DNA from: Oscillospiraceae bacterium
GTDB lineage: Bacteria; Bacillota; Clostridia; Oscillospirales; Oscillospiraceae
NCBI GenBank assembly: GCA_017448455.1
Contig: JAFSLL010000073.1
Span: 1-38,259, forward strand
Direction: 5' to 3'
DNA length: 38,259 nucleotides
Of the stretch, positions 4,217-16,411 are shown piece by piece; position 1 is the stretch's first letter, and each line of letters opens with the position of its first letter. The translations under genes were made by a program, and so were the position numbers. The notes beneath the pieces are model-generated. The model searched no databases. It was not told the DNA's origin and worked only from the letters and a program-made list of their open reading frames with translations.

Positions 4217-5428
4217 GTGCTGAATGTGAAAACACCGGAGGAGGTTCTCCGACTGATCAAAAGTGAATTCCAGGCTCTTGACACCTGTGAGACCGTACCC
4301 ATTTCAGAGGCGCTCGGACGGGTGCTGACGGAGGATATCACAGCGGACGAGTATGTGCCGGACTTTGATCGGTCTACTGTGGATGGCTACGCGCTCCGGG
4401 CGAGGGATACCTTCGGCTGCTCGGATGCAGCGCCGGCGGTACTGATGTTCGCGGGTGAGGTCATGATGGGCTCAGGTGCGCGCGTGTCGGTTGAGAAGGA
4501 TTCCTGTGCCTATGTGCCCACGGGCGGAGCAATCCCGCAGGGATGCGACTGCGTTGTGATGATTGAGTATACGGAGGACTACGGCGACGGCACTGTCGGC
4601 ATTCTCAAGCCCGGTGCCCCCGGCATGAACCTGATCTTCCGCGGGGACGACGTGTTCCCCGGCAAGACTGTTCTCAAGGCGGGCCGCGTGCTGGCGCCGC
4701 AGGATATCGGCGCGCTGGCTGCCATCGGGAAATGGGAAGTTCCTGTTCGTCCGCGCCTTCGTGTTGGAGTGATCTCCACGGGTGACGAGCTTGTCCCCGC
4801 CAACCAGAAACCCGGCCCCGGGCAGGTAAGGAACGTAAACAGCCCGATGCTTGCGGCCCTGCTGACGGAGCATGGTGCGGAAGCGGTTGACTTCGGTATC
4901 GTCACAGATGATGAGAAGCTGCTGTGGGAAAAGACCAGAGCCGCGACGGAAAGCTGCGATGCGGTGATTCTCTCGGGCGGCAGCAGCGCGGGTGTCAGGG
5001 ATGCGGCCTGCCGGATTATTGACTCGCTTGGTGAGCTGCTGCTGCATGGCATTGCGATGAAACCCGGAAAACCGACGATTCTCGGCAAAGTAGGCAACAA
5101 ACCGCTGATCGGACTGCCCGGACACCCGGTCGCGGCGTTTTTTGCAGCAAAACTCTTTGTGGTTCCCCTGTTGGCGCAGCTGGAGGGGAGGCGGCAGCGA
5201 AGCTACCCGGTTAAGGCAAAGCTGGGAGAAAGCCTCAATGCAAACCACGGGCGGATGCAGATCAGCGCCTGCCGTATGGAATCAGCAGGCGGAGAACTTG
5301 TAGCGTTTCCGGTTCATTCCAAATCCGGTCTCATCACACAGCTGGCCGGGTCTGATGGTTTTATGATGATCGGCAGAGACTGTGAGGGCGCTGCGAAAGG
5401 CTCTGAAACCGACGTATACTGGAGTTAA
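4217..5428 (+). CDS. moeA: Molybdopterin molybdotransferase MoeA (single-domain copy)
   Basis: 403-residue MoeA, which inserts molybdate (or tungstate) into adenylylated molybdopterin in the cytoplasm. The N-terminal MoeA domain runs to about residue 170 and includes DFDRSTVDGYALRA and VPTGGAIPQGCDCVVM. The central molybdopterin-binding (MoaB/MogA-like) domain follows, with GVISTGDELV, RNVNSPML, LSGGSSAG and GLPGHPVAAF. The C-terminal small barrel covers about the last 80 residues. I chose the GTG at 4217 because GGAGG lies at 4204-4208, at correct spacing, and the N-terminus then aligns with the family. It is followed after 12 bases by a second moeA with a fused extra domain, then by a tungstate transporter, so it probably works in tungsten or molybdenum cofactor loading. 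Confidence 0.93.
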   Translation: MLNVKTPEEVLRLIKSEFQALDTCETVPISEALGRVLTEDITADEYVPDFDRSTVDGYALRARDTFGCSDAAPAVLMFAGEVMMGSGARVSVEKDSCAYVPTGGAIPQGCDCVVMIEYTEDYGDGTVGILKPGAPGMNLIFRGDDVFPGKTVLKAGRVLAPQDIGALAAIGKWEVPVRPRLRVGVISTGDELVPANQKPGPGQVRNVNSPMLAALLTEHGAEAVDFGIVTDDEKLLWEKTRAATESCDAVILSGGSSAGVRDAACRIIDSLGELLLHGIAMKPGKPTILGKVGNKPLIGLPGHPVAAFFAAKLFVVPLLAQLEGRRQRSYPVKAKLGESLNANHGRMQISACRMESAGGELVAFPVHSKSGLITQLAGSDGFMMIGRDCEGAAKGSETDVYWS

Positions 5429-5440
5429 GAGGAAACGGGA

Positions 5441-7351
5441 ATGGCTTTTCACTATCTGAGCAATGTGCCGCTGGAACAGGCAAAAAAAGACTATTTCGGG
5501 ACCCTGAAAGGACAGGGGTTTCTGGCGCGTTCAGAATATGTTCGTGTCCCGGAGGCTTTGGGACGTATGACGGCACGGGCAGTATATGCCCACATCAACG
5601 CGCCTCATTATGCCTGCAGTGCCATGGACGGCATTGCGCTTTTTGCCGGGGACAGCTTCGGCGCTACGGAGACGACACCGATTGTGCTGAGCAAAGGGCA
5701 GTTTTCGGTTGTGGACACAGGTGACCCGATTCCCGAAGGAACTGACGCGGTGATTATGGTGGAGGAATTGGTGAAAAATGAAGACGGCAGTGTCACCATT
5801 CATGCCCCTGCCACCCCATGGCAGCATATTCGTCAGATCGGGGAAGACATCTGTGCCGGAGAGATGATTCTCCCGAGCTTTATGGAAGTAACGCCTGCCG
5901 CCATCGGAGCCATGATTGCCGGTGGTGTGCTGGAACTGGAAGTGCTTGCAAAGCCCCTGGTCGGCATCATTCCAACGGGGGATGAGATCGTTCCGCCCTG
6001 TGCGGATCCTGCTCCGGGCGAGATTCTGGAGTTTAACTCCTCCATTTTTTCCGCTATGCTTTCCTCCTGGGGGGCAGCAGCGAAAACCTATCCCATTGTT
6101 CCGGACCGGTACGATGAGATCTGCTCCGCGCTTGCAAAAGCGGTGGAAGAATGTGATATGGTCATTCTCAACGCCGGCTCCTCGGCGGGCAGAGACGATT
6201 ACTCCGTTTCGGCGGTGAAGGGAGTTGGACAGGTGCTGTACCACGGCATTGCCATCAGACCCGGAAAGCCTGCCATTCTCGGCTGCAAGGGAGCGGTGCC
6301 GATTCTGGGGGTTCCGGGATATCCGGTTTCCGGGATCATTGTAATTGAAGAATTGCTTCGGCCCCTGATCGACATCTGGTTCGGCCGGGAGAGCAGAGCT
6401 GAAAACAGCGTCAGCGCATCACTGGCTCGACCTGTAGTATCCGGGCTGAAGTATCGGGAATATGTGCGCGTTCGCGTGGGCAGTGTGGGTGACTCCCTGA
6501 TCGCCTCTCCTTTGCCCAGAGGAAGCGGAGTGGTTTCGTCTTTCATGAAAGCGGACGGCCTGCTTGAGGTTCCGCAGGAAACGGAGGGGTATGCGGCAGG
6601 AGAGGAAGTTCGTGTACGACTCCTGACGGATGAAAAGAGAATTCAGAACACCCTGACTGTGATCGGCAGCCATGACCCGCTGCTGGATGAGCTGGCAGAT
6701 CTCATCCACCGCGAAAACCGACGCCTGTTCCTCTCATCCGCCCATGTGGGCTCGATGGGAGGCATCATGGCCATCCGCCGGGGCGAGGCCCATGCCGCGG
6801 GCATCCACCTCCTCGACACCGCGACGGGCGAATATAACCGTTCGTATATCAAAAAATACTTCCCGCACGGCGGTGTGTATCTTGTCCGCTGTGTAGGCCG
6901 TCAGCAGGGGCTGATGATGCAGAAAAGCAACCCGCTCGGTATTGCTTCTTTTGCCGACATTGTCAAAGACAACGTACGTTATGTAAACCGCCAGAAGGGC
7001 TCCGGCACCCGTGTGCTGACAGATTATCTCTGCGAACGGTACGGCATCGACCGGGAGCGTATTTACGGCTATGAACGCGAAGAAATGACGCACAACGCGG
7101 TTGCCGTTCAGATTGCGTGCGGTTCCGCGGATGCCGGCATGGGCATTTTTTCGGCGGCGAAGATTTACGGCCTGGATTTTCTGCCAATCTGTGAAGAAGA
7201 GTATGATCTGCTGATTCCGGAAAGTGTCTGGAATACCGATCGGATCAGGCAGCTCCTGAAAACGCTGAAAAGCGATGCCTTCCGGGAAAGGCTCGAAGCC
7301 ATGGGAGGCTATACCGTATCCAATCCCGGAGAGATCATCAACATAGGATAG
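5441..7351 (+). CDS. MoeA fused to a periplasmic-binding-protein-like domain
   Basis: 636-residue two-part protein. Residues 1 to about 400 are a full MoeA: YACSAMDGIALFAGDSFG, VDTGDPIPEGTDAVIMVEE, IIPTGDEIVPP, ILNAGSSAGRDDYS and GVPGYPVSG. Residues from about 403 to the end form a PBP-like domain (Pfam PBP_like type) beginning VIGSHDPLLDELADLI, with SSAHVGSMGGIMAIRRGEA, VNRQKGSGTRVLTDYL and ACGSADAGMGI. No signal peptide or membrane segment is present, so the binding-protein fold is cytoplasmic. By known family behaviour such domains bind oxyanions or ligands. Here it may sense or deliver molybdate/tungstate to the MoeA active site, which is inference. It starts with ATG after AAGAGGAAACGG, 12 bases after moeA, and precedes tupA by 54 bases. 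Confidence 0.9.
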   Translation: MAFHYLSNVPLEQAKKDYFGTLKGQGFLARSEYVRVPEALGRMTARAVYAHINAPHYACSAMDGIALFAGDSFGATETTPIVLSKGQFSVVDTGDPIPEGTDAVIMVEELVKNEDGSVTIHAPATPWQHIRQIGEDICAGEMILPSFMEVTPAAIGAMIAGGVLELEVLAKPLVGIIPTGDEIVPPCADPAPGEILEFNSSIFSAMLSSWGAAAKTYPIVPDRYDEICSALAKAVEECDMVILNAGSSAGRDDYSVSAVKGVGQVLYHGIAIRPGKPAILGCKGAVPILGVPGYPVSGIIVIEELLRPLIDIWFGRESRAENSVSASLARPVVSGLKYREYVRVRVGSVGDSLIASPLPRGSGVVSSFMKADGLLEVPQETEGYAAGEEVRVRLLTDEKRIQNTLTVIGSHDPLLDELADLIHRENRRLFLSSAHVGSMGGIMAIRRGEAHAAGIHLLDTATGEYNRSYIKKYFPHGGVYLVRCVGRQQGLMMQKSNPLGIASFADIVKDNVRYVNRQKGSGTRVLTDYLCERYGIDRERIYGYEREEMTHNAVAVQIACGSADAGMGIFSAAKIYGLDFLPICEEEYDLLIPESVWNTDRIRQLLKTLKSDAFRERLEAMGGYTVSNPGEIINIG

Positions 7352-7405: not shown

Positions 7406-8476
7406 ATGAAAAAAACGATGTCTTTATTTCTGGCACTTATCATGATCTTCGCACTATGCGCCTGCGGTCAACAGGTCCCCGCACCTGCAAATGAGGCCGC
7501 TCCTTCTGAGGAGCCGGTACCTGCCGCCGAAGAGGCCGCCCCTGCTGAGGAACCTGCTCCTGCCGAAGAACCCGCCCCTGAGGCGGACACACTGGTCGTC
7601 GATACCTGCATTCTCAAGGAAGCGGACGATGCCATGATCAACAACTACAGCCTGCTGGCAGTGAATCCCGATGCCCCGTGGATTGATGCCGACGGCAACC
7701 CTGTCAGTGATGTGTCGATCAATGCGGTCGGTGCCGCCGCGCTGATCAACTGGCTGCTGTCCGAGGAAGGCCAGGAGCTTGCAGCCAACTATGGCTTTGA
7801 GCAGTACGGCGAATATCTGTTCTACCTCAAGGATGACCGTCCTGTCTCCACTGCTGAGATTCTGTCAGCCACTGAGGAGACGAAGCAGATCCGCCTGTCT
7901 ACGACAACCTCTGTCAACGATTCCGGTCTGCTGGGCTATCTGCTGCCGATCTTCGAGGAAAAGTATGGCTATGAGGTCGAGGTCTACTCCGCTGGCACCG
8001 GCAAATCCATTGCAAACGCCAAAATGGGCAATGCCGACCTGATCCTCGTCCACTCCAAGAAGCAGGAAGAGGCTTTCATCGCAGACGGTTTCTCCTATGT
8101 GCTTGACGGCATGGAAGCGGAACGGCTGAACTGGATGTACAACTACTTCGTGCTCTGTGGACCTTCTGCGGATCCTGCCGGCGTCAAAGACGCTGCGGAT
8201 GTCAGTGCCGCCTTCAAAGCCATTGCCGACGGCAAGTTTCCCTTTATCTCCCGCGGCGACGGCTCCGGAACGCATACCAAGGAGATCAGTCTCTGGCCCG
8301 AGGAACTCGGCATCACCGCTGAGGCAGATAGCTTCAAGGACTATACCGACTGGTATATCTCAGCAAACACCGGAATGGGCGCGTGCCTCGTGATGGCTGA
8401 GGAGATGAGCGCTTACATCCTCACCGACAAGGCAACCTTCCTGACCTTCGTTGCCAACGACGGCGTTATGGGTTGA
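7406..8476 (+). CDS. tupA: Tungstate ABC transporter binding lipoprotein TupA, apparently circularly permuted
   Basis: 356-residue lipoprotein. The signal peptide ends in ALCAC with lipidated Cys20, followed by a Glu/Ala/Pro-rich linker (about 21-60). Two TupA ligand motifs are clear: STTTSVNDSGLL (165-176) and SRGDGSGTHTKE (282-293), with LVHSKKQEEAF and MYNYFVLCGP between. In ordinary TupA the chain continues after LTDKATFL with a segment containing NxYxxxAVNP and a final helix with WLxSEEGQ. Here that segment lies before the first ligand motif instead: INNYSLLAVNPDA (78-90), LINWLLSEEGQELAANYGFEQYGE (113-136). The protein ends shortly after LTDKATFLTF. The old C-terminus joins the old N-terminus through a linker at about 141-161. 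I chose ATG 7406 (GGAGG at 7396-7400) over the upstream in-frame TTG. A hairpin follows the stop. Confidence 0.88.
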   Translation: MKKTMSLFLALIMIFALCACGQQVPAPANEAAPSEEPVPAAEEAAPAEEPAPAEEPAPEADTLVVDTCILKEADDAMINNYSLLAVNPDAPWIDADGNPVSDVSINAVGAAALINWLLSEEGQELAANYGFEQYGEYLFYLKDDRPVSTAEILSATEETKQIRLSTTTSVNDSGLLGYLLPIFEEKYGYEVEVYSAGTGKSIANAKMGNADLILVHSKKQEEAFIADGFSYVLDGMEAERLNWMYNYFVLCGPSADPAGVKDAADVSAAFKAIADGKFPFISRGDGSGTHTKEISLWPEELGITAEADSFKDYTDWYISANTGMGACLVMAEEMSAYILTDKATFLTFVANDGVMG

Positions 8477-8552: not shown

Positions 8553-9239
8553 ATGGGTTCTTCTGTCAGAAAGGCGATGGAGCTGATTCTCTCGGCTGAT
8601 CCGGAGCTTTTGAATATCCTCTCGACTACGGCCAGGGTTTGTCTGACCAGCTCGATTCTTGCGCTGATCATCGGGGTACCGCTCGGGATTCTGCTCGGTG
8701 CTGAGCATTTTCCGGGGCGAAGAGCACTGTTGGTCATAAACCGGACGCTGATCGGCATGCCGCCGGTGGTTTGCGGCCTGCTGTTCTATATGCTGTTTTC
8801 CGGTGTTGGTCCATTCCGCAATCTTCATCTGCTCTTCACGGTCAAGCTGATGATTATCGCGCAGGTCGTCCTGATCACACCTATCATTATCGGGGTGATG
8901 GAGACCTTTGTTGCGGACACCGCGCCCGCATTGCGGGAGACAGCCAAGGGTCTGGGCTTTGGACGGATCAAAGAATACCGGTTGCTGATCAACGAATGCC
9001 TTTATTCCATCTTCTCATCCTACCTGCTGAGCTTTGCCCGTGCGATTGCCGAGGTCGGTGCCGTGGCGATGGTTGGCGGTGCGATCGCATGGAAGACGAA
9101 TGTCATGACCACCGCGATCATGATGTATACCAACCGTGGCAGCTTTACGCTCGGCATCGCACTGGGACTGATCCTGCTGACGCTTTCACTGCTGGTGAAC
9201 ATCATCCTCAGTCTGATGCAGGGGAGGCTGAGCCGATGA
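8553..9239 (+). CDS. tupB: Tungstate ABC transporter permease TupB
   Basis: 228-residue integral membrane permease of the molybdate/tungstate type. Hydrophobic segments begin around residues 28-48 (VCLTSSILALIIGVPLGILL), 70-85, 95-120, 150-170 and 200-222. The coupling-helix region LRETAKGLGFGRIKEYRLL (about 128-146) carries the EAA-type ATPase-contact motif. The short length, N-terminal amphipathic start and RAIAEVGAVAMVGG segment match TupB. It starts at ATG 8553 after AAAGGA with rather long spacing. Its stop codon overlaps the ATPase start by four bases (ATGA), so the two are translationally coupled. It works with TupA and TupC to import tungstate for the adjacent cofactor genes. Confidence 0.9.
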   Translation: MGSSVRKAMELILSADPELLNILSTTARVCLTSSILALIIGVPLGILLGAEHFPGRRALLVINRTLIGMPPVVCGLLFYMLFSGVGPFRNLHLLFTVKLMIIAQVVLITPIIIGVMETFVADTAPALRETAKGLGFGRIKEYRLLINECLYSIFSSYLLSFARAIAEVGAVAMVGGAIAWKTNVMTTAIMMYTNRGSFTLGIALGLILLTLSLLVNIILSLMQGRLSR

Positions 9240-9889
9240 AGACAACAGCCTTTACCAAGACCTACAGCAGGCGTGCAGTGCTCTCTCTGCCTGAGCTGGA
9301 ACTGCTAAAAGGCGAAATCACCGCGATAATCGGCCCAAACGGCAGCGGGAAATCCACCTTTGCGAAGATCCTCGCGGGGATTGAACGTGCGGATCATAAA
9401 AAACCGATTATTTCCGGTGCTACTGTCGGTTATCTCCCGCAGAAAAGCTTCCCGTTCCGCATGAGCACTGAGCGGAATATTATGCAGAACGGGAATGATT
9501 CTGCCCACGCGAAGGAGCTGATGGCAGCGCTGGGGATCGACGCATTGGCTAAACAGAGCGCGAAGAAGCTCTCCGGCGGCGAGACAGCCCGCATGGCTCT
9601 CTGCCGCATCCTGATGCGCCGGTATGATCTGCTGATCCTCGACGAGCCGACAACGGCAATGGACATGGAATCCACGCTCGCGGCGGAGAAGCTTATCCGG
9701 GAGGCCTGTAAAAAACAGGACTGCGCGCTTGTGCTCATCACGCACAGCGTCTCCCAGGCGCGGCGCATCGCGGACCGCGTAATCGTGCTCCATCAGGGTG
9801 TGCTCATCGAGCAGGGACAGACAGATCAGGTTCTCAATACGCCGAATCAGGAGCAGACCAGACAGTTTCTTGAGTTTTACGGGGTATAG
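9236..9889 (+). CDS. tupC: Tungstate ABC transporter ATPase TupC
   Basis: 217-residue ABC ATPase. It has Walker A GPNGSGKST (33-41), Q-loop Gln69, signature LSGGE (112-116), Walker B LLILDE (132-137, catalytic Glu137), D-loop and switch His170 in LITHS. All catalytic residues are intact. I set the start at ATG 9236, which overlaps the tupB stop as ATGA. The same frame is open far upstream to 8771 but that part only shadows tupB. The compact size, with no regulatory C-terminal domain, fits tungstate importers better than ModC, which usually carries a molybdate-binding tail. A short 87-base gap with a promoter separates it from the next gene. Confidence 0.92.
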   Translation: MKTTAFTKTYSRRAVLSLPELELLKGEITAIIGPNGSGKSTFAKILAGIERADHKKPIISGATVGYLPQKSFPFRMSTERNIMQNGNDSAHAKELMAALGIDALAKQSAKKLSGGETARMALCRILMRRYDLLILDEPTTAMDMESTLAAEKLIREACKKQDCALVLITHSVSQARRIADRVIVLHQGVLIEQGQTDQVLNTPNQEQTRQFLEFYGV

Positions 9890-9976: not shown

Positions 9977-10417
9977 ATGAAAGACAAGATCGTTTATGCG
10001 ATTATGATCCTTCTCGTTGTAGTGCTTGCCCTCGGTGTATCTGCCGGACAGTCCGCTTCAGGCACTTTCATTACAACGACCGACCGTGAGACCGGGAACT
10101 TTTCCCCGAACTGTGTGGATCTGTATTTTCCCTCCAACCCCACAACAGGATATTCCTGGGAGGTCTCCGCTGCCGATGACGGAATTGTCGCCGTCCGCGA
10201 CCAGTATTTTGCCGACAGCGGCGATCTCGGTATGACCGGCGTCGGAGGGACACACTGGTTCCACTTCAGCGGCCTTCGGGAGGGGACGACCTCCGTTACA
10301 TTCCGCTATGTGCGGGCATGGGAACCGGAAACTGCGGTCTATACCTATGTGTATCGGCTCACCGTGGACGAGGCGGGTAATGTCTTGATCTGGGGCGTCG
10401 AGGTCGGGAACTCCTGA
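9977..10417 (+). CDS. Secreted chagasin-like cysteine protease inhibitor (I42 family)
   Basis: 146-residue protein with an N-terminal hydrophobic segment (about 5-23, signal peptide or anchor). The rest is one chagasin-type immunoglobulin-like domain. The three inhibitory loops are recognisable: NPTTGYSW (54-61), GVGGTHWF (88-95) and RAWEP (113-117, in place of the usual RPWE). Known family members block papain-like (C1) cysteine proteases by inserting these loops into the active cleft. The protein acts outside the membrane. It follows tupC by 87 bases, has its own promoter and is closed by a strong terminator. I see no cysteine protease gene in the window, so the target could be a self, host or competitor enzyme. 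The family call is firm; the role is open. Confidence 0.85.
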   Translation: MKDKIVYAIMILLVVVLALGVSAGQSASGTFITTTDRETGNFSPNCVDLYFPSNPTTGYSWEVSAADDGIVAVRDQYFADSGDLGMTGVGGTHWFHFSGLREGTTSVTFRYVRAWEPETAVYTYVYRLTVDEAGNVLIWGVEVGNS

Positions 10418-10609: not shown

Positions 10610-11995
10610 TTACAGATCGAAATACGCTTCCGCGTTTCTGACACAGATCCCCTCGACGATCTTCTTGAGCGCTTTTTCATCGTTGGGATACTCGCCGTTC
10701 TCCACCCAGGAACCGATCAGTTCACAGAGGATGCGGCGAAAATACTCATGGCGCGGATAACTCAGGAAACTGCGGGAGTCCGTAAGCATCCCCACGAAGC
10801 CCGCCAAATATCCCTCATTGGCAAGACTGGTCATCTGCTCGGTCATGCCAGTTTTGTGGTCGTTAAACCACCAGGCGCTGCCGTGCTGCAGTTTGCCGAC
10901 TGCTTCGCCGGTCTGGAAAGCGCCCATCACAGTCTCGATCGCGGTGTTGTCATTGGGGTTGAGCGAGTAGAGGATGGTCTTGGGCAGTTCGCCGGTCTCG
11001 TCCAGCGCGTTGAGGAAGTGGGCCAGTTCCTTGACAGAAGCGGTCTCGCCGATGGAATCGATGCCCGCGTCGGGACCGAGACCGCGGAACACGCGCTGGG
11101 AATTGTCACGGATTACGCCGAAATGGAGCTGCATCACGACACCCAGGCGGTGGTATTCGCGTCCGAGGATCAGCAGCAATGCGGTTTTGAACTGCTTCTG
11201 CTCCTGCGCTGTGGGGATCTCGCCGGAGAGACGTTTCCGGAAAATTGCCTCGACCTCCGCTTCGCTGGCCTCGGCATAGGGCACGCTCTCCATGCCATGG
11301 TCGGATACCCGGCATCCGTTCGAGACGAAGAACTGCAGCCGATCAATAAGCACGTCCGCGAGCTGCGCGAAGCTCCCGATCTCGCCAAGACGCCGGAGAT
11401 AATCCAGATAATCCGCCTTTTCGATCCCAAGGGCTTTGTCAGGCCGGTAGCTCGGGAGTACTTTCACGCTGAAGCTCTTATCTTCCGCGATTTTTGTGTG
11501 CCACTCCAGTGTGTCCGCGGGATCGTCGGTCGTGCAGAGGGCTTTGACATGGGAATTGATGATGAGCTTCCGGGCACTCATGTCGGCGCTTTGCAGCTTT
11601 GTGTTGCAGAGCTGCCAGACTTCTTCAGCCGTGTCACCGTTCAGAGTCCCTTCGTAGCCGAAGTAATTTCTGAGCTCCAGATGACTCCAGTGGTAGATCG
11701 GATTGCCGATGGCGAGACCGACGGTCTCGGCGAATTTCTGAAACTTTTCCCGGTCGCTCGCATCGCCGGTGATGTATTTCTCATCCACGCCGGCCGAGCG
11801 CATGAGCCGCCACTTATAGTGGTCGCCGCCCAGCCAGACCTGCGTGATGTTCTCAAACTGACGATCCTCATAGATCTCCTGCGGGTCCAGATGGCAGTGG
11901 TAGTCGATAATCGGCAGCGGCGCGGCATAATCATGATAGAGGTGCTTTGCCGTGTCGGTGGACAACAGGAAATCCCTGTCCATGAATGCTTTCAT
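10610..11995 (-). CDS. uxaC: Glucuronate isomerase
   Basis: 461-residue uronate isomerase of the amidohydrolase superfamily, full length. It converts D-glucuronate to D-fructuronate (and can act on D-galacturonate to tagaturonate) in the cytoplasm. Landmarks are the N-terminal metal-binding IIDYHCHLDP (His33, His35), CTTDDPADTLEWH in the middle, MQLHFGVIRDN and a C-terminal GMLTDSRSF-YPRHEYFRR block, all typical of UxaC. The start at 11995 has AAAGGGCGG just upstream. A second ATG four codons in is also possible. It is the last gene of the uxuA-uxuB-eda-kdgK-uxaC operon, 12 bases after kdgK, and ends just before the bidirectional terminator. It catalyses the first step although it is placed last. 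Confidence 0.95.
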   Translation of the reverse strand: MKAFMDRDFLLSTDTAKHLYHDYAAPLPIIDYHCHLDPQEIYEDRQFENITQVWLGGDHYKWRLMRSAGVDEKYITGDASDREKFQKFAETVGLAIGNPIYHWSHLELRNYFGYEGTLNGDTAEEVWQLCNTKLQSADMSARKLIINSHVKALCTTDDPADTLEWHTKIAEDKSFSVKVLPSYRPDKALGIEKADYLDYLRRLGEIGSFAQLADVLIDRLQFFVSNGCRVSDHGMESVPYAEASEAEVEAIFRKRLSGEIPTAQEQKQFKTALLLILGREYHRLGVVMQLHFGVIRDNSQRVFRGLGPDAGIDSIGETASVKELAHFLNALDETGELPKTILYSLNPNDNTAIETVMGAFQTGEAVGKLQHGSAWWFNDHKTGMTEQMTSLANEGYLAGFVGMLTDSRSFLSYPRHEYFRRILCELIGSWVENGEYPNDEKALKKIVEGICVRNAEAYFDL

Positions 11996-12007
11996 CGTTC
12001 CGCCCTT

Positions 12008-13105
12008 TCAGCGCTTGACGCGCGCGCCGGCGCCGCCCATGATGGCTTCGACTTCGTTCACGCTCGCCATGGAGGTGTCGCCCGGCGTGGTCATCGCGAG
12101 CGCGCCGTGCGCCGCGCCATAGTTGACCGCCCTGAGCGCGTCGCCCGTGGTCATCAGCCCGTACACCAGACCGGAGGCGAAGGAGTCGCCGCCGCCGACG
12201 CGGTCCATGATCTCCAGTCCGTCGTACGCCTTGGACTGGTAAATCTCGCCGTCTGCCCAGCAGATGGCTTTCCAGTCATTGACGGTGGCGGTCTTCACGG
12301 TGCGCAGCGTGGTCGCCACGACCTTGAAGTTCGGATAGGTCTCGGCGGCTTTGCCGATCATCTTCTTGTAGCCCTCGATGTTCAGCTCTTTGAGGTTTTC
12401 ATCGTTGCCTTCGATCTCAAAGCCGAGGCAGGCGGTGAAGTACTCTTCGTTGCCGATCATCACGTCGACGTACTTCGCAACTTCGCGGTTCACTTCACGC
12501 GCTTTTTCCAAACCGCCGATTGCGCTCCACATGGAGGGGCGGTAGTTCAGATCATAGGAAATCACAGTGCCGTACTTCTTCGCAATCTTGCAGGCTACGA
12601 TTACGGTCTCGCAGGCCTGCTCGCTCAGCGCCGCGTAGATTCCGCCGGTGTGCAGCCAGCGCACGCCCAGCTTGCCGAAGATGTACTCGAAGTCGAAGTC
12701 CTCCGGCGTTGCCTGAGAAATGGCGGTGTTCGCGCGGTCGGAGCAGCCCACCGCACCGCGGATGCCGAAGCCGCGCTCGGTGAAGTTGATGCCGTTGCGG
12801 CAGATCCTGCCGATGCCGTCGGTCTTCTTCCAGTAGATGAGGTCGGTGCTCACGCCGCCCTGCTCGATGAAATCCTTCATCAGCCTGCCGACTTCGTTGT
12901 CCGCGAAAGCGGTGATGACAGCGGTGTTCATGCCGAAGCACTTGTGCAGGCCGCGGATGACGTTATACTCGCCGCCGCCTTCCCAGGCGCGGAAGGAGCG
13001 CGCGGTGCGGATCCGCCCCTCGCCGGGATCGAGCCGCAGCATGATTTCGCCCAGGCTTACGGCGTCAAATTTGCATTCTTCTCTCGGACGTAATTTCAGA
13101 TCCAT
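12008..13105 (-). CDS. kdgK: 2-keto-3-deoxygluconate kinase (PfkB family)
   Basis: 365-residue ribokinase/PfkB-fold sugar kinase. It has the N-terminal substrate loop EGGGEYNVIRGL (about 42-53) and the C-terminal GGGDSFASG (304-312), with catalytic base Asp307 in the anion hole. DLNYRPSMW (185-193) is seen in KdgK proteins. It should phosphorylate 2-keto-3-deoxy-D-gluconate to KDPG with ATP. The specificity is inferred from its place between the aldolase gene (16 bases upstream) and uxaC (12 bases downstream) in a complete glucuronate operon. AAAGAAAGGAG precedes the ATG. It is somewhat longer than the ~310-340 residue norm, with about 10 extra residues at the N-terminus. Confidence 0.92.
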   Translation of the reverse strand: MDLKLRPREECKFDAVSLGEIMLRLDPGEGRIRTARSFRAWEGGGEYNVIRGLHKCFGMNTAVITAFADNEVGRLMKDFIEQGGVSTDLIYWKKTDGIGRICRNGINFTERGFGIRGAVGCSDRANTAISQATPEDFDFEYIFGKLGVRWLHTGGIYAALSEQACETVIVACKIAKKYGTVISYDLNYRPSMWSAIGGLEKAREVNREVAKYVDVMIGNEEYFTACLGFEIEGNDENLKELNIEGYKKMIGKAAETYPNFKVVATTLRTVKTATVNDWKAICWADGEIYQSKAYDGLEIMDRVGGGDSFASGLVYGLMTTGDALRAVNYGAAHGALAMTTPGDTSMASVNEVEAIMGGAGARVKR

Positions 13106-13121
13106 GTTTTTGCTCCTTTCT

Positions 13122-13763
13122 TTATCCTCTGGCTTCCCGGACGATCTCCACGGATTTTCTGCAGAGCTCCGTGATCTCGTCCCACTTGTTGTTGTCGATC
13201 AGGTCGGCGGTGACCATGTAGCTGCCGCCGCAGGCCGCGATCACCGGGCTGGAAATGTAGTCCTTCAGATTCTTGAGGGAAACACCGCCGGTGGGCATGA
13301 CCTTGAACATCGGGAAGGGAGCGGAGAGCGCCTTGATCTTGGCGAGGCCGCCCGACTGCTCAGCCGGGAAGAACTTGATGACCTCCAGACCGAACTTCAG
13401 CGCCTGATGATACTCAGAGGCAGTGGTGCAGCCGGGATAGATGGGGATGTTCTTCTCCTGCGCATAGGCAACCAGCTCGGGGTCGAAACCGGGACTGACG
13501 ATGAAGTCTCCGCCCGCCTCGATCACGGCATCGATCTGGGCCGTGTTGGTGACCGTTCCCGCGCCGACCAGCATGTCGGGGCAGGCTTCCTTCATGAGCT
13601 TGATGGCTTTGTCCGCGCCTGCGGCACGGAAGGTGACTTCCGCCACGGGAACGCCGCCCGCACAAAGGGCCTTGCCGAGCGCTGCTGCGTCGCGTTCGGG
13701 GTGGTTGAGCTTGATAACCGGCACCACGCCGATGGCACTGATTCTTTCGTTCATGGCATTCAT
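13122..13763 (-). CDS. eda: KDPG/KHG aldolase
   Basis: 213-residue class I aldolase that splits 2-keto-3-deoxy-6-phosphogluconate into pyruvate and glyceraldehyde-3-phosphate, the last step of glucuronate breakdown. Active-site parts are visible: Glu42 in AEVTFRA, the phosphate-binding VGAGTV, IYPGCTTASE, and the Schiff-base Lys130 in EVIKFFPAE, then MPTGGVS near the C-terminus. The length is normal for the family. The start at 13763 is supported by GGAGGG at proper distance; an in-frame ATG three codons later lacks one. Only 3 bases separate it from the uxuB stop, so the two are coupled. Confidence 0.95.
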   Translation of the reverse strand: MNAMNERISAIGVVPVIKLNHPERDAAALGKALCAGGVPVAEVTFRAAGADKAIKLMKEACPDMLVGAGTVTNTAQIDAVIEAGGDFIVSPGFDPELVAYAQEKNIPIYPGCTTASEYHQALKFGLEVIKFFPAEQSGGLAKIKALSAPFPMFKVMPTGGVSLKNLKDYISSPVIAACGGSYMVTADLIDNNKWDEITELCRKSVEIVREARG

Positions 13764-13766
13764 GTT

Positions 13767-15323
13767 TTATCCCTCCGTTACATATTTGTGCAGGGTTGCC
13801 CGGACAGCGCCGGGACCTGCGGTGAGTTCGGTAAAGTAGGCGCAGACCTTGTCAGCCAGACCCGCTTCGACGAGATCGACGCCGAAGATGGTCCTGTTGC
13901 GCAGCAGCTCCTCGAGTTTCGAGCAGTCGGGCTTTTCGCCGAGCCGGAAGTCCCTGACGTATGCCTGGGCGGTCTCCAGCAGCGGGTCGGGAGAGGGCTC
14001 GAAGGCCTCACCCTGATCGTTCACTGCCATCAGGTAGCGAAGCCATCCGGCATGCACCAGCGGGATGAGCCTGAGGTCCTGCACTTTCAGCTCATCGGAG
14101 GCAAGATAGGCCTTGATCGTCTCGCCGAAGCGGATGGGCAGCTTCTGCGAGGTGTCGGTCGCGATGCGCTGCGGGGTGTCTGGCATGAAGGGATTCGGAA
14201 TCCGGACCTTCACGACCGTGTCGATGAAGTCCTGAGGCTTGATGATGCCGGGATCGGTCACGACGGGCAGCCCTTCCCTGTAGCCGATGGTCTCTACCAG
14301 CCTGAGCAGGTCCGCGTCTCTCATCTCGTCAGAGATTTTCTGGAAGCCCAGCAGACAGCCGTAGATGGCGAGCGCCGTGTGCAGCGGGTTGAGGCAGGTG
14401 CAGACCTTCATGCGTTCCACCTTGTCGACGGTTTCACGCGCGGTGAAGAAGAAGCCGGCCTTTTCAAGCGGCGGGCGCCCGTTCGGGAAGTTGTCCTCAA
14501 GGACGAGATACTCGCTCTCTTCGGCGTTGACATAGGGCGCTTTGACCGTGCCGCGGGCATTGCGCACCGGGGCGAAGCCCTCAAGACCGTCAGCCTCCAG
14601 CATCGCGCCGACAGTGAGATCGGGGCTCGGCGTGATCTTGTCGATCATCGTCCAGGGGAAGGAGACCTTCTCGCCGTTTTCAATATAAGCTTTGAAGCCC
14701 TCGTCACCCCAGGCTTCGGCAAAGGCCGTCATGGCGGCTTTGAGTTTGTCGCCGTTGTGGGAGCAGTTATCGGTGCTCACCATCGCAATCGGGAAAGCGC
14801 CAGCCTGATAACGTGTGAGCAGCAGTCCGGCGACCTTGCCCATGTAGCTCTTTGCGTCCTCCGAAGAGACCGCCAGATCGGCCTTGACGTCGTCGGCAGC
14901 GAGACTGTAGCCCTTCTCGGTGATCGTGAAGGTCACCAGCTGCAGGGAAGGATTGCGGAAGATCTCCTTCAGCCGCTCTTCCCCGCCATAGAGGAAGCAG
15001 GTTTCGGCCATGGCGCCGAGAATGTTTTTCTCGACACTGCCGTCAGCCTTGAGCGTGACAACGACCGCAAGATTGTCAAAGGTCTCGCCGCCGCGGTCCA
15101 TGCGCTCTACGGCAATGATGCCCTTGTCCAGCACGCCCTCATTCAGCAGGCGCTCAGCGGCCATGCCGTGCAGGGCCTTGAAGATGTTGCCCGCGCCGAA
15201 GTGCAGCCAGGTAGGGTTGGCCTTCGTGCGCGCGATCATGGCTTCGCGGTCATATCCGGGCAGGCGGTAGCCCTTTGCCTCCCATTCAGCCCGGTTTTTC
15301 AGAGTTTCGTTGTTCAGTTTCAT
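13767..15323 (-). CDS. uxuB: D-mannonate oxidoreductase (fructuronate reductase)
   Basis: 518-residue member of the long-chain mannitol dehydrogenase family. It reduces D-fructuronate to D-mannonate with NADH. The N-terminal Rossmann start WLHFGAGNIFKA (about 39-50) binds the nucleotide. STDNCSHNGDKLK (183-195) and MIDKITPSPD (226-235) are family blocks. The catalytic triad region KVCTCLNPLHTALA gives Lys306, Asn312 and His315. UxuB rather than mannitol or tagaturonate dehydrogenase is inferred from the directly overlapping uxuA: the two genes overlap by four bases (ATGA). Confidence 0.92.
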   Translation of the reverse strand: MKLNNETLKNRAEWEAKGYRLPGYDREAMIARTKANPTWLHFGAGNIFKALHGMAAERLLNEGVLDKGIIAVERMDRGGETFDNLAVVVTLKADGSVEKNILGAMAETCFLYGGEERLKEIFRNPSLQLVTFTITEKGYSLAADDVKADLAVSSEDAKSYMGKVAGLLLTRYQAGAFPIAMVSTDNCSHNGDKLKAAMTAFAEAWGDEGFKAYIENGEKVSFPWTMIDKITPSPDLTVGAMLEADGLEGFAPVRNARGTVKAPYVNAEESEYLVLEDNFPNGRPPLEKAGFFFTARETVDKVERMKVCTCLNPLHTALAIYGCLLGFQKISDEMRDADLLRLVETIGYREGLPVVTDPGIIKPQDFIDTVVKVRIPNPFMPDTPQRIATDTSQKLPIRFGETIKAYLASDELKVQDLRLIPLVHAGWLRYLMAVNDQGEAFEPSPDPLLETAQAYVRDFRLGEKPDCSKLEELLRNRTIFGVDLVEAGLADKVCAYFTELTAGPGAVRATLHKYVTEG

Positions 15324-16411
15324 TTCGCTTCAGCCTCCTTGTCCATCAGGTCCCAGGCGCCCAGCATGTACATGATGCCGAGAGCGCGGTCATACAGACC
15401 GTAGCCGGGGCGTACATTGCCCGGTTTCTCATCCCAGAGATGCCTGCCGTGATCGGGCCGGATGTAGCCTTCCCAGCCGCTGTCATGATAGGCGCGCAGA
15501 ATGTCCAGTATGCCGGTCTCACCGTCGCAGTCGCGGTGGCTGGCTTCGGAAAAGTCGCCGTTCGGGAAGTGCTTGACGTTGCGGATGTGGGCGAAAGCGA
15601 TGCGGTCTGCGTGCTTGCGTACGATGGCCGCAACGTTATTTTCCGGATTGGCGTTCAGCGAGCCAGAGCAGAGCGTCAGGCAGTTGTAGGGATCATCAAC
15701 CATCTTGAGGAAGCGGTCGATGCTTTCCGCGTCGATGAGCAGTCTCGGCAGTCCGAAGATATCCCAGGGAGGATCGTCCATGTGGACGGCCATCTTGATG
15801 TCACACTCGTGGCAGACAGGCATCAGCTTCTCGAGGAAATACCGGAAATTCTCCCAGAGCTTTTCCTTCGTGACGGGTTTGTATGCCTCAAACAACTCAT
15901 CCAGCCGGGCCATGCGCTCGGGCTCCCAGCCGGGGAAGGTCATGTGGTACTTCTCCGTCAGGCCCATGACGTAGTCGGCCATCTCCTTCGGATCATCCTG
16001 AATCATGTCTTTCTGATAGAAGAGAGCGGTTGATCCGTCGCCGACCGGGTGGAACATGTCGGAGCGTGTCCAGTCAAAGATCGGCATGAAGTTGTAGCAA
16101 ATGACTTTCACGCCGAACGGAGCGAGATTCCGGATGGTCTGAATGTAGTTTTCAATGTACGCGTCTCTGGTCGGAAGGCCGATCTTAATGTCATCATGGA
16201 CATTGACGGATTCCACGACTTCCGCGTTGAAGCCGGCGGCAGTAATCTGATCGACGACTTGCCTGATCTCCTCCGGCTGCCAGATCTCGCCCGGCATTTT
16301 GCTGTGCAGAGCCCAGACGATGGTGCTCACACCCGGGATCTGACGGATGTCGGAAAGCTTGATTTTGTCATTTCCTTCGCCGTACCAGCGAAAACCCATT
16401 TGCATTGGCAT
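15320..16411 (-). CDS. uxuA: Mannonate dehydratase
   Basis: 363-residue UxuA, which dehydrates D-mannonate to 2-keto-3-deoxy-D-gluconate (Fe2+/Mn2+-dependent TIM barrel). Family blocks are MGFRWYGEGND at the N-terminus, YNFMPIFDWTRSD in the middle, MAVHMDDPPWDIFGLPRLL, LCSGSLNANPENN with a metal-ligand Cys, FAHIRNVKH, and GYIRPDHGRHLW near the C-terminus. The length fits the shorter Gram-positive form. The start at 16411 follows an AGGAGGAATCG ribosome binding site, the best in this operon. It is the promoter-proximal gene of the operon and is divergent from an AraC regulator across a 135-base gap. Confidence 0.96.
   Translation of the reverse strand: MPMQMGFRWYGEGNDKIKLSDIRQIPGVSTIVWALHSKMPGEIWQPEEIRQVVDQITAAGFNAEVVESVNVHDDIKIGLPTRDAYIENYIQTIRNLAPFGVKVICYNFMPIFDWTRSDMFHPVGDGSTALFYQKDMIQDDPKEMADYVMGLTEKYHMTFPGWEPERMARLDELFEAYKPVTKEKLWENFRYFLEKLMPVCHECDIKMAVHMDDPPWDIFGLPRLLIDAESIDRFLKMVDDPYNCLTLCSGSLNANPENNVAAIVRKHADRIAFAHIRNVKHFPNGDFSEASHRDCDGETGILDILRAYHDSGWEGYIRPDHGRHLWDEKPGNVRPGYGLYDRALGIMYMLGAWDLMDKEAEAK

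What the first reader, a model, noticed from the sequence alone, without database searches (positions are those of the whole stretch)
7406..8476. Tungstate-binding protein TupA looks circularly permuted
In ordinary TupA the order is TTTS ligand motif, RGDxSGTH ligand motif, LTDxATF, then the NxYxxxAVNP segment and a final helix with WLxSEEGQ. Here the AVNP and SEEGQ pieces (residues about 63-141) come first, directly after the lipoprotein linker. A new linker joins them to the TTTS motif at 165, and the chain stops just after LTDKATFLTF. Nothing is missing from the fold, only the order differs, and all ligand motifs are intact. The new termini would fall at the crossover between lobes. Tandem duplication followed by loss of both ends is the usual route to such a protein. 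I know of no described permuted TupA.
Basis: partly seen in the sequence, partly recalled or inferred. Interest (0 to 1): 0.82.

Follow-up and report, generated by a model that had tools for sequence, protein, structure and literature searches.

The report
Circularly permuted tungstate-binding protein
Some gut and rumen clostridia carry a tungsten-scavenging receptor whose chain order is rotated, so that the piece that normally ends the protein now begins it; it looks intact and in use, which gives a clean natural case of how a protein can be rewired.

Summary
The protein at 7406-8476 (356 aa) is a circular permutation of TupA. A profile of 27 ordinary TupAs matches it in two pieces: model 178-242 at residues 65-140, and 2-174 at 161-348. 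Rotated, it gives one hit of 256 bits; with the moved piece shuffled, at most 218. AlphaFold2 predicts one compact fold (pLDDT 93); the moved piece alone loses its strands.

It is no assembly error: 51 of 55 public loci were aligned and share the order (4 dropped as masked, broken or partial); tupB follows in 52 of 55. Permuted proteins form one clade (100/100) beside TupAs of ordinary order from the same taxonomic order. Ligand residues known from TupA are kept. Of 60 genomes, all 18 with it carry a tungsten-oxidoreductase gene, against 2 of 42 without.

One correction: the new ends lie in lobe B, 16-18 residues before the lobe crossover. Binding was not tested and a permutation-aware superposition was not possible. 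A permuted binding protein of another family (MglB-2) is published; my searches found no permuted TupA.

The parts
7406..8476 (+). permuted tupA coding sequence, 356 aa, stop included
7406..7462 (+). signal peptide (residues 1-19); lipobox-like LCAC with Cys20 at 7463-7465
   Evidence: sequence; pattern check of homologues; cleavage and lipidation not tested
7466..7591 (+). Pro/Glu/Ala-rich tether, residues 21-62
   Evidence: sequence; length varies among homologues
7598..7825 (+). piece that ends ordinary TupA (residues 65-140; TupA model 178-242), now first
7826..7885 (+). new linker joining old C-terminus to old N-terminus (residues 141-160), well ordered in the model and conserved
7886..8449 (+). 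piece that begins ordinary TupA (residues 161-348; TupA model 2-174), now last
7901..7912 (+). TTTS ligand motif, residues 166-169
8051..8053 (+). His216, counterpart of TupA His59
8252..8275 (+). RGDGSGTH, residues 283-290 (R283, T289 = TupA R118, T124)
8426..8428 (+). Asp341, counterpart of TupA D170
8553..9239 (+). tupB, ABC permease (TupB model 146.8 bits, below its curated cut-off of 320; general permease model over its cut-off)
9236..9889 (+). tupC, ABC ATPase; called tupC by position, the family hits are general ABC ATPases
5441..7351 (+). molybdopterin biosynthesis protein of the MoeA type with extra C-terminal part (NF011068, 726 bits, over cut-off; that this part is PBP-like is recalled)
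4217..5428 (+). MoeA-type molybdopterin molybdotransferase (only the domain model TIGR00177 is over its cut-off)

Best explanation
The gene encodes the working tungstate receptor of a TupABC importer, in a circularly permuted form. Shown: the chain order is rotated once, with the cut at about residue 183-185 of ordinary TupA and a conserved linker of about 20 residues closing the old termini; the family model is covered once, from 2 to 242 of 246 but for 3 positions at the cut; permuted proteins form one clade; the sequence is under strong purifying selection. Inferred: the chain folds to the ordinary two-lobed TupA shape; it is exported and, in this species, probably lipid-anchored; tungstate binds in the cleft between TTTS/His216 of lobe A and Arg283/Thr289/Asp341 of lobe B, the lobes close, and the loaded receptor docks on TupB/TupC, which pass tungstate in for tungsten enzymes such as the aldehyde-oxidoreductase-like protein of the same genome. 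Consequence of the permutation (from residue mapping): lobe A (residues 81-240), discontinuous in ordinary TupA, becomes continuous; lobe B (65-80 plus 254-356) becomes the split one; the N-terminal tether moves from lobe A to lobe B. It most likely arose by in-frame tandem duplication and loss of both outer ends in an ancestor within this taxonomic order of Clostridia.
Confidence: 0.92

Rival explanations
1. Not a permutation but an extra N-terminal domain fused to a truncated TupA that lacks the second half of lobe A.
For: Sequential structure comparison leaves model 1-100 unmatched to TupA; the isolated piece matches nothing in the PDB second look.
Against: The piece is homologous to just the part that the rest lacks, it does not form its strands alone, and in the whole model it is as confident as the rest.
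Confidence: 0.02
2. Assembly or binning artefact that joined two tupA fragments.
For: The window's genome is a fragmented assembly (308 contigs, contamination 7.29).
Against: Same order and a conserved linker in 51 of 55 public loci, the other 4 masked, broken or partial, and permuted hits in 18 of 60 related genomes, the window's included.
Confidence: 0.005
3. A real permuted protein whose ligand has shifted (for example to molybdate or another oxyanion), so that it is no longer mainly a tungstate receptor.
For: It scores 137.7 bits where the curated TupA cut-off is 400; molybdopterin genes are next to it.
Against: The ligand residues proposed for TupA are kept; its presence follows the tungsten-enzyme family (18 of 18 against 2 of 19 in the genus) more closely than ModA does (15 of 18 against 10 of 19, counted). 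No genome of the class sample reaches the cut-off, those with ordinary TupA included (0 of 291).
Confidence: 0.1
4. The permuted order is ancestral and ordinary TupA is the derived form.
For: The trees are midpoint-rooted, so direction is not proved by rooting alone.
Against: In the phylum sample 122 of 123 genomes with a hit show no permuted match (three hits that began early in the profile were read and are of ordinary order); the solved TupA structures are of ordinary order; permuted sequences lie inside the tree, beside relatives of ordinary order.
Confidence: 0.01

Closest known systems
TupA of Desulfovibrio alaskensis G20 (5my5; PMC5517513, passages read)
   Same: Homologous over the whole core; same ligand residues; same kind of transporter operon
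   Different: Order of the two parts of the chain; new linker between the old termini; ends and tether on lobe B; three longer loops than in ordinary relatives (alignments)
TpMglB-2 (Tp0684) of Treponema pallidum, 'Type Ic / Cluster Bc' (PMC4990184, abstract and passages read)
   Same: A naturally circularly permuted binding protein of an ABC importer; the paper reports relatives in Gram-positive bacteria
   Different: Sugar-binding, Type I fold (as the paper says); cut in another place; there a fourth lobe crossover is added, here the number of crossovers stays at two (inferred from the residue mapping)
ModA
   Different: A separate gene in the same genome, matched from position 1 to 216 of the ModA model in one piece

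Membership tests
TupA (tungstate-binding proteins) | Homology over the whole binding core | tested here: met
   Model positions 2-174 and 178-242 of 246 covered
TupA (tungstate-binding proteins) | TTTS motif and the residues His59, Arg118, Thr124, Asp170 proposed for binding | tested here: met
   Residues 166-169, 216, 283, 289, 341
TupA (tungstate-binding proteins) | Operon with TupB and TupC | tested here: met
   Permease and ATPase genes follow; TupB model below its curated cut-off, ATPase not resolved to TupC by the library
TupA (tungstate-binding proteins) | Curated equivalog score of NF041772 (400 bits) | tested here: not met
   137.7 bits; but 0 of 291 class genomes reach it, those with ordinary TupA included, so the cut-off does not separate the two here
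TupA (tungstate-binding proteins) | Usual order of the chain | tested here: not met
   this is the finding, so it is filed as a permuted derivative of the family, not as an ordinary member
TupA (tungstate-binding proteins) | Very tight, selective tungstate binding | not testable with these tools
   Needs calorimetry
Permuted binding proteins of the MglB-2 kind (Type Ic) | Circularly permuted order | tested here: met
Permuted binding proteins of the MglB-2 kind (Type Ic) | Type I sugar-binding fold and homology to MglB | tested here: inconclusive
   No such protein among the 50 rows shown, which are TupA, a phosphate-binding protein, ModA, LysR-type effector domains and the like; absence from that list does not exclude

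The most novel reading that the evidence does not exclude
This is the founding member of a permuted subclass of Type II binding proteins in which the permutation was favoured by selection: it turns lobe A into one continuous domain, splits lobe B, and moves the tether to the other lobe, changing how the receptor is presented to TupB or how it opens and closes. The independent case of MglB-2 would then be a parallel solution.
Probability: 0.3. Interest if true: 0.75.

Novelty: new variant of a known kind. Interest (0 to 1): 0.62.

Why it matters
Natural circular permutations with one apparent origin, close relatives of ordinary order and a likely function are uncommon to my knowledge. Here the window protein and its nearest ordinary relative are 57.5% identical and both sit beside a TupB-like permease where that could be seen, so what chain order does to folding, export, tethering and docking can be tested directly. 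It also means that a standard family model sees little more than the second part of this TupA, which could make surveys of tungsten use in gut and rumen bacteria miss or mis-score it.

Tried and rejected

I looked for faster change in TupB on the branch where TupA was permuted: the TupB stem is long (0.97 against 0.46 for TupA), but another TupB branch is longer still relative to TupA (1.23 against 0.28), so I claim nothing. An AU test of whether the ordinary TupAs of the sister family form one clade did not finish. A first dN/dS run was off by one codon and is replaced. Fused tandem TupA was looked for only by eye in hit lists; neighbouring tupA gene pairs occur (G220), a fused one was not seen. 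Three hits of the phylum sample that began early in the permuted profile were read after all and are of ordinary order; most other hits were judged by the part of the profile that they cover, without reading the gene.

Literature: 'TupA' with 'circular permutation' (3 papers; the only 'tupa' in PMC9557024 and PMC6617141 is part of other words; PMC7953163 judged by title and abstract start). Permuted binding proteins: 8 papers; 4; 5; 843 hold three of the four terms, 12 listed. 'Circularly permuted' with 'tungstate' (6 papers; in PMC3589368 the phrase is in the reference list; the other five judged by title and abstract start). The library holds open-licence papers only.

Full report
What is there. 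The window encodes, on the + strand, moeA (4217-5428), a longer MoeA-type gene (5441-7351), the gene in question (7406-8476), tupB (8553-9239) and tupC (9236-9889). NCBIfam's TupA model matches the protein best at residues 152-351, positions 7-192 of 266, with 2 stretches in all. phmmer against the PDB finds 5 distinct sequences: four TupA-type chains (3lr1, 3muq, 5my5, 3kn3), matched from residue 149 or 160 to 348 or 351, and 3cvg (190-348). In the three alignments shown (3lr1, 3muq, 5my5) a second stretch, not significant by itself, puts residues 66-89, 66-127 or 69-89 on the C-terminal end of the same chain.

Is it a permutation? I built a profile from 27 ordinary TupAs of the class (from 30 loci; three were not picked up by the pattern; model length 246). 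The window protein gives two hits: model 178-242 at residues 65-140 (38 bits) and 2-174 at 161-348 (210 bits). Rotated at the linker it gives one hit, 2-242, 256.2 bits. With the moved piece shuffled, 200 trials give a median of 211.2 and a maximum of 218.2. The piece alone gives 42.5 bits; of 500 shuffles 18 were reported, best 5.0. Three ordinary TupAs, members of the profile, score best in native order, one of them tied with a two-residue rotation. Profile-profile comparison with 34 permuted sequences gives 102-292 = 2-177 and 6-84 = 178-245, abutting without overlap. So the family is present once and the order is rotated.

Where the cut is. PMC5517513 (passages) gives lobe A as 2-76 and 201-251, a central strand 77-89 and lobe B as 91-200. 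From the alignments, window residue 354 corresponds to TupA 183, residue 65 to about 185, Tyr81 to Tyr201 and Arg240 to Arg76. The new ends are therefore inside lobe B, 16-18 residues before the crossover, not at it. Lobe A becomes one stretch (81-240, new linker included) and lobe B the discontinuous one. The number of crossovers stays at two. These are inferences from mapping.

Spread. A scan of public genome contigs gave 55 loci. Four were dropped before alignment (L081 masked, L084 and L089 with stops, L092 a fragment); the other 51 and the window share the order and 101 invariant residues. Titles name uncultured Oscillospiraceae, Ruminococcaceae, Lachnospiraceae, Clostridia and similar, many of them from ruminants; all say MAG or uncultured. 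In even samples with the permuted profile, E 1e-10, the window's genome counted: class, 47 of 391 genomes hit, 4 permuted; order, 7 of 245, 3 permuted; phylum, 123 of 249, only the window's own permuted (three hits that began early in the profile were read and are of ordinary order). In the family of G646, 14 of 150 hit, 1 permuted. Permuted copies thus occur under six family codes (f1, f17, f23, f26, f51, f98).

Origin. With permuted sequences rotated, a tree of 62 rows (24 permuted representatives, 38 ordinary; L151, L157 and a second frame of L140 left out) has the permuted ones as one clade (100/99) with N_L178 next (99/95). A second tree of 69 rows, with three long-branch rows (N_L177, N_L179, N_L187) left out and ten rows added, gives 25 permuted as one clade (100/100; all 200 bootstrap trees), the ordinary-order N_L202 as sister (100/96) and further ordinary sequences of the same family code beside them (95/81). 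Window to N_L202: 57.5% identity over 252 columns. TupB, in a quick tree of 50 rows, gives the same grouping (22 permuted operons one clade, SH-aLRT 100; N_L178 next, 93). Rooting is by midpoint. One origin is the simplest reading; transfers between families were not tested. The step-by-step route is not shown. That fused tandem copies of a receptor of this kind do arise is shown by a 533-aa open frame in a same-genus genome that holds two ModA copies end to end.

Function. The residues named for the metal site of TupA (Thr9-11, Ser12, His59, Arg118, Thr124, Asp170) correspond to 166-168, 169, 216, 283, 289 and 341. They are the same in 52 of 52 sequences, except residue 168, Thr in 50 and Ser in 2. 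dN/dS by Nei-Gojobori against five relatives is 0.033-0.118 overall and 0.060-0.189 in the moved piece (some dS values exceed 1). tupB follows in 52 of 55 loci; of the other three, two stop at a contig end and one is a fragment; tupC in 50 of 55. Among 60 genomes (the window's and 59 relatives) 18 have a TupA hit, and all hits are permuted (one genome, G017, in two pieces); AFOR_C, the C-terminal part of tungsten aldehyde oxidoreductases, is in all 18 and in 2 of the 42 others (Fisher 2e-13; within the genus 18 of 18 against 2 of 19, 1.2e-8; shared descent and unequal completeness are not corrected for). That enzymes of this group appear to use only tungsten, with one possible exception, is stated in PMC11980592 (passages). 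ModA occurs in 15 of 18 and 10 of 19 within the genus (counted). So the permuted protein is most likely the tungstate receptor of these cells.

Known or new. PMC4990184 (abstract and passages) describes T. pallidum MglB-2 as a circularly permuted, glucose-binding protein with relatives in Gram-positive bacteria, and proposes a Type Ic class. That is the precedent for the kind. I found no paper on a permuted TupA (with checks; open-licence library only). I therefore class it as a new variant of a known kind. MglB-2's authors suggest that tethering may have favoured permutation; here 17 of 55 homologue loci have a signal sequence without a lipobox by a simple pattern, which speaks against a lipid tether as the only reason.

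Noticed in passing
L194 (G015:C6:9500-12800, minus strand): A same-genus genome has a 533-aa open frame with two ModA copies fused in frame, the second without a signal peptide: the kind of duplication from which a permuted protein could arise.
   Followed up: partly
L043, L044, L046, L050, L051, L053-L055, L062, L064, L066, L067, L069, L070, L073, L080, L083: These 17 permuted homologues have a signal sequence but no lipobox by a simple pattern, though 32 others have one; how such a receptor is kept at the cell is unclear.
   Followed up: partly
G006 (L042 and L074) and G033 (L041 and L054): Two permuted tupABC copies in one genome, 72-86% identical to the window protein in the best segment.
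   Followed up: no
G525:C285 (L179): A distant TupA-like protein of ordinary order behind what looks like a LysM domain (by eye), in a genome that also has a permuted TupA.
   Followed up: no
window 9977-10417 +: Chagasin-type peptidase inhibitor (Inhibitor_I42) directly after tupC.
   Followed up: no
window 10610-16411 -: Genes that look like uronate degradation in a row (glucuronate isomerase, a sugar kinase, KDPG aldolase, fructuronate reductase-like, mannonate dehydratase).
   Followed up: no
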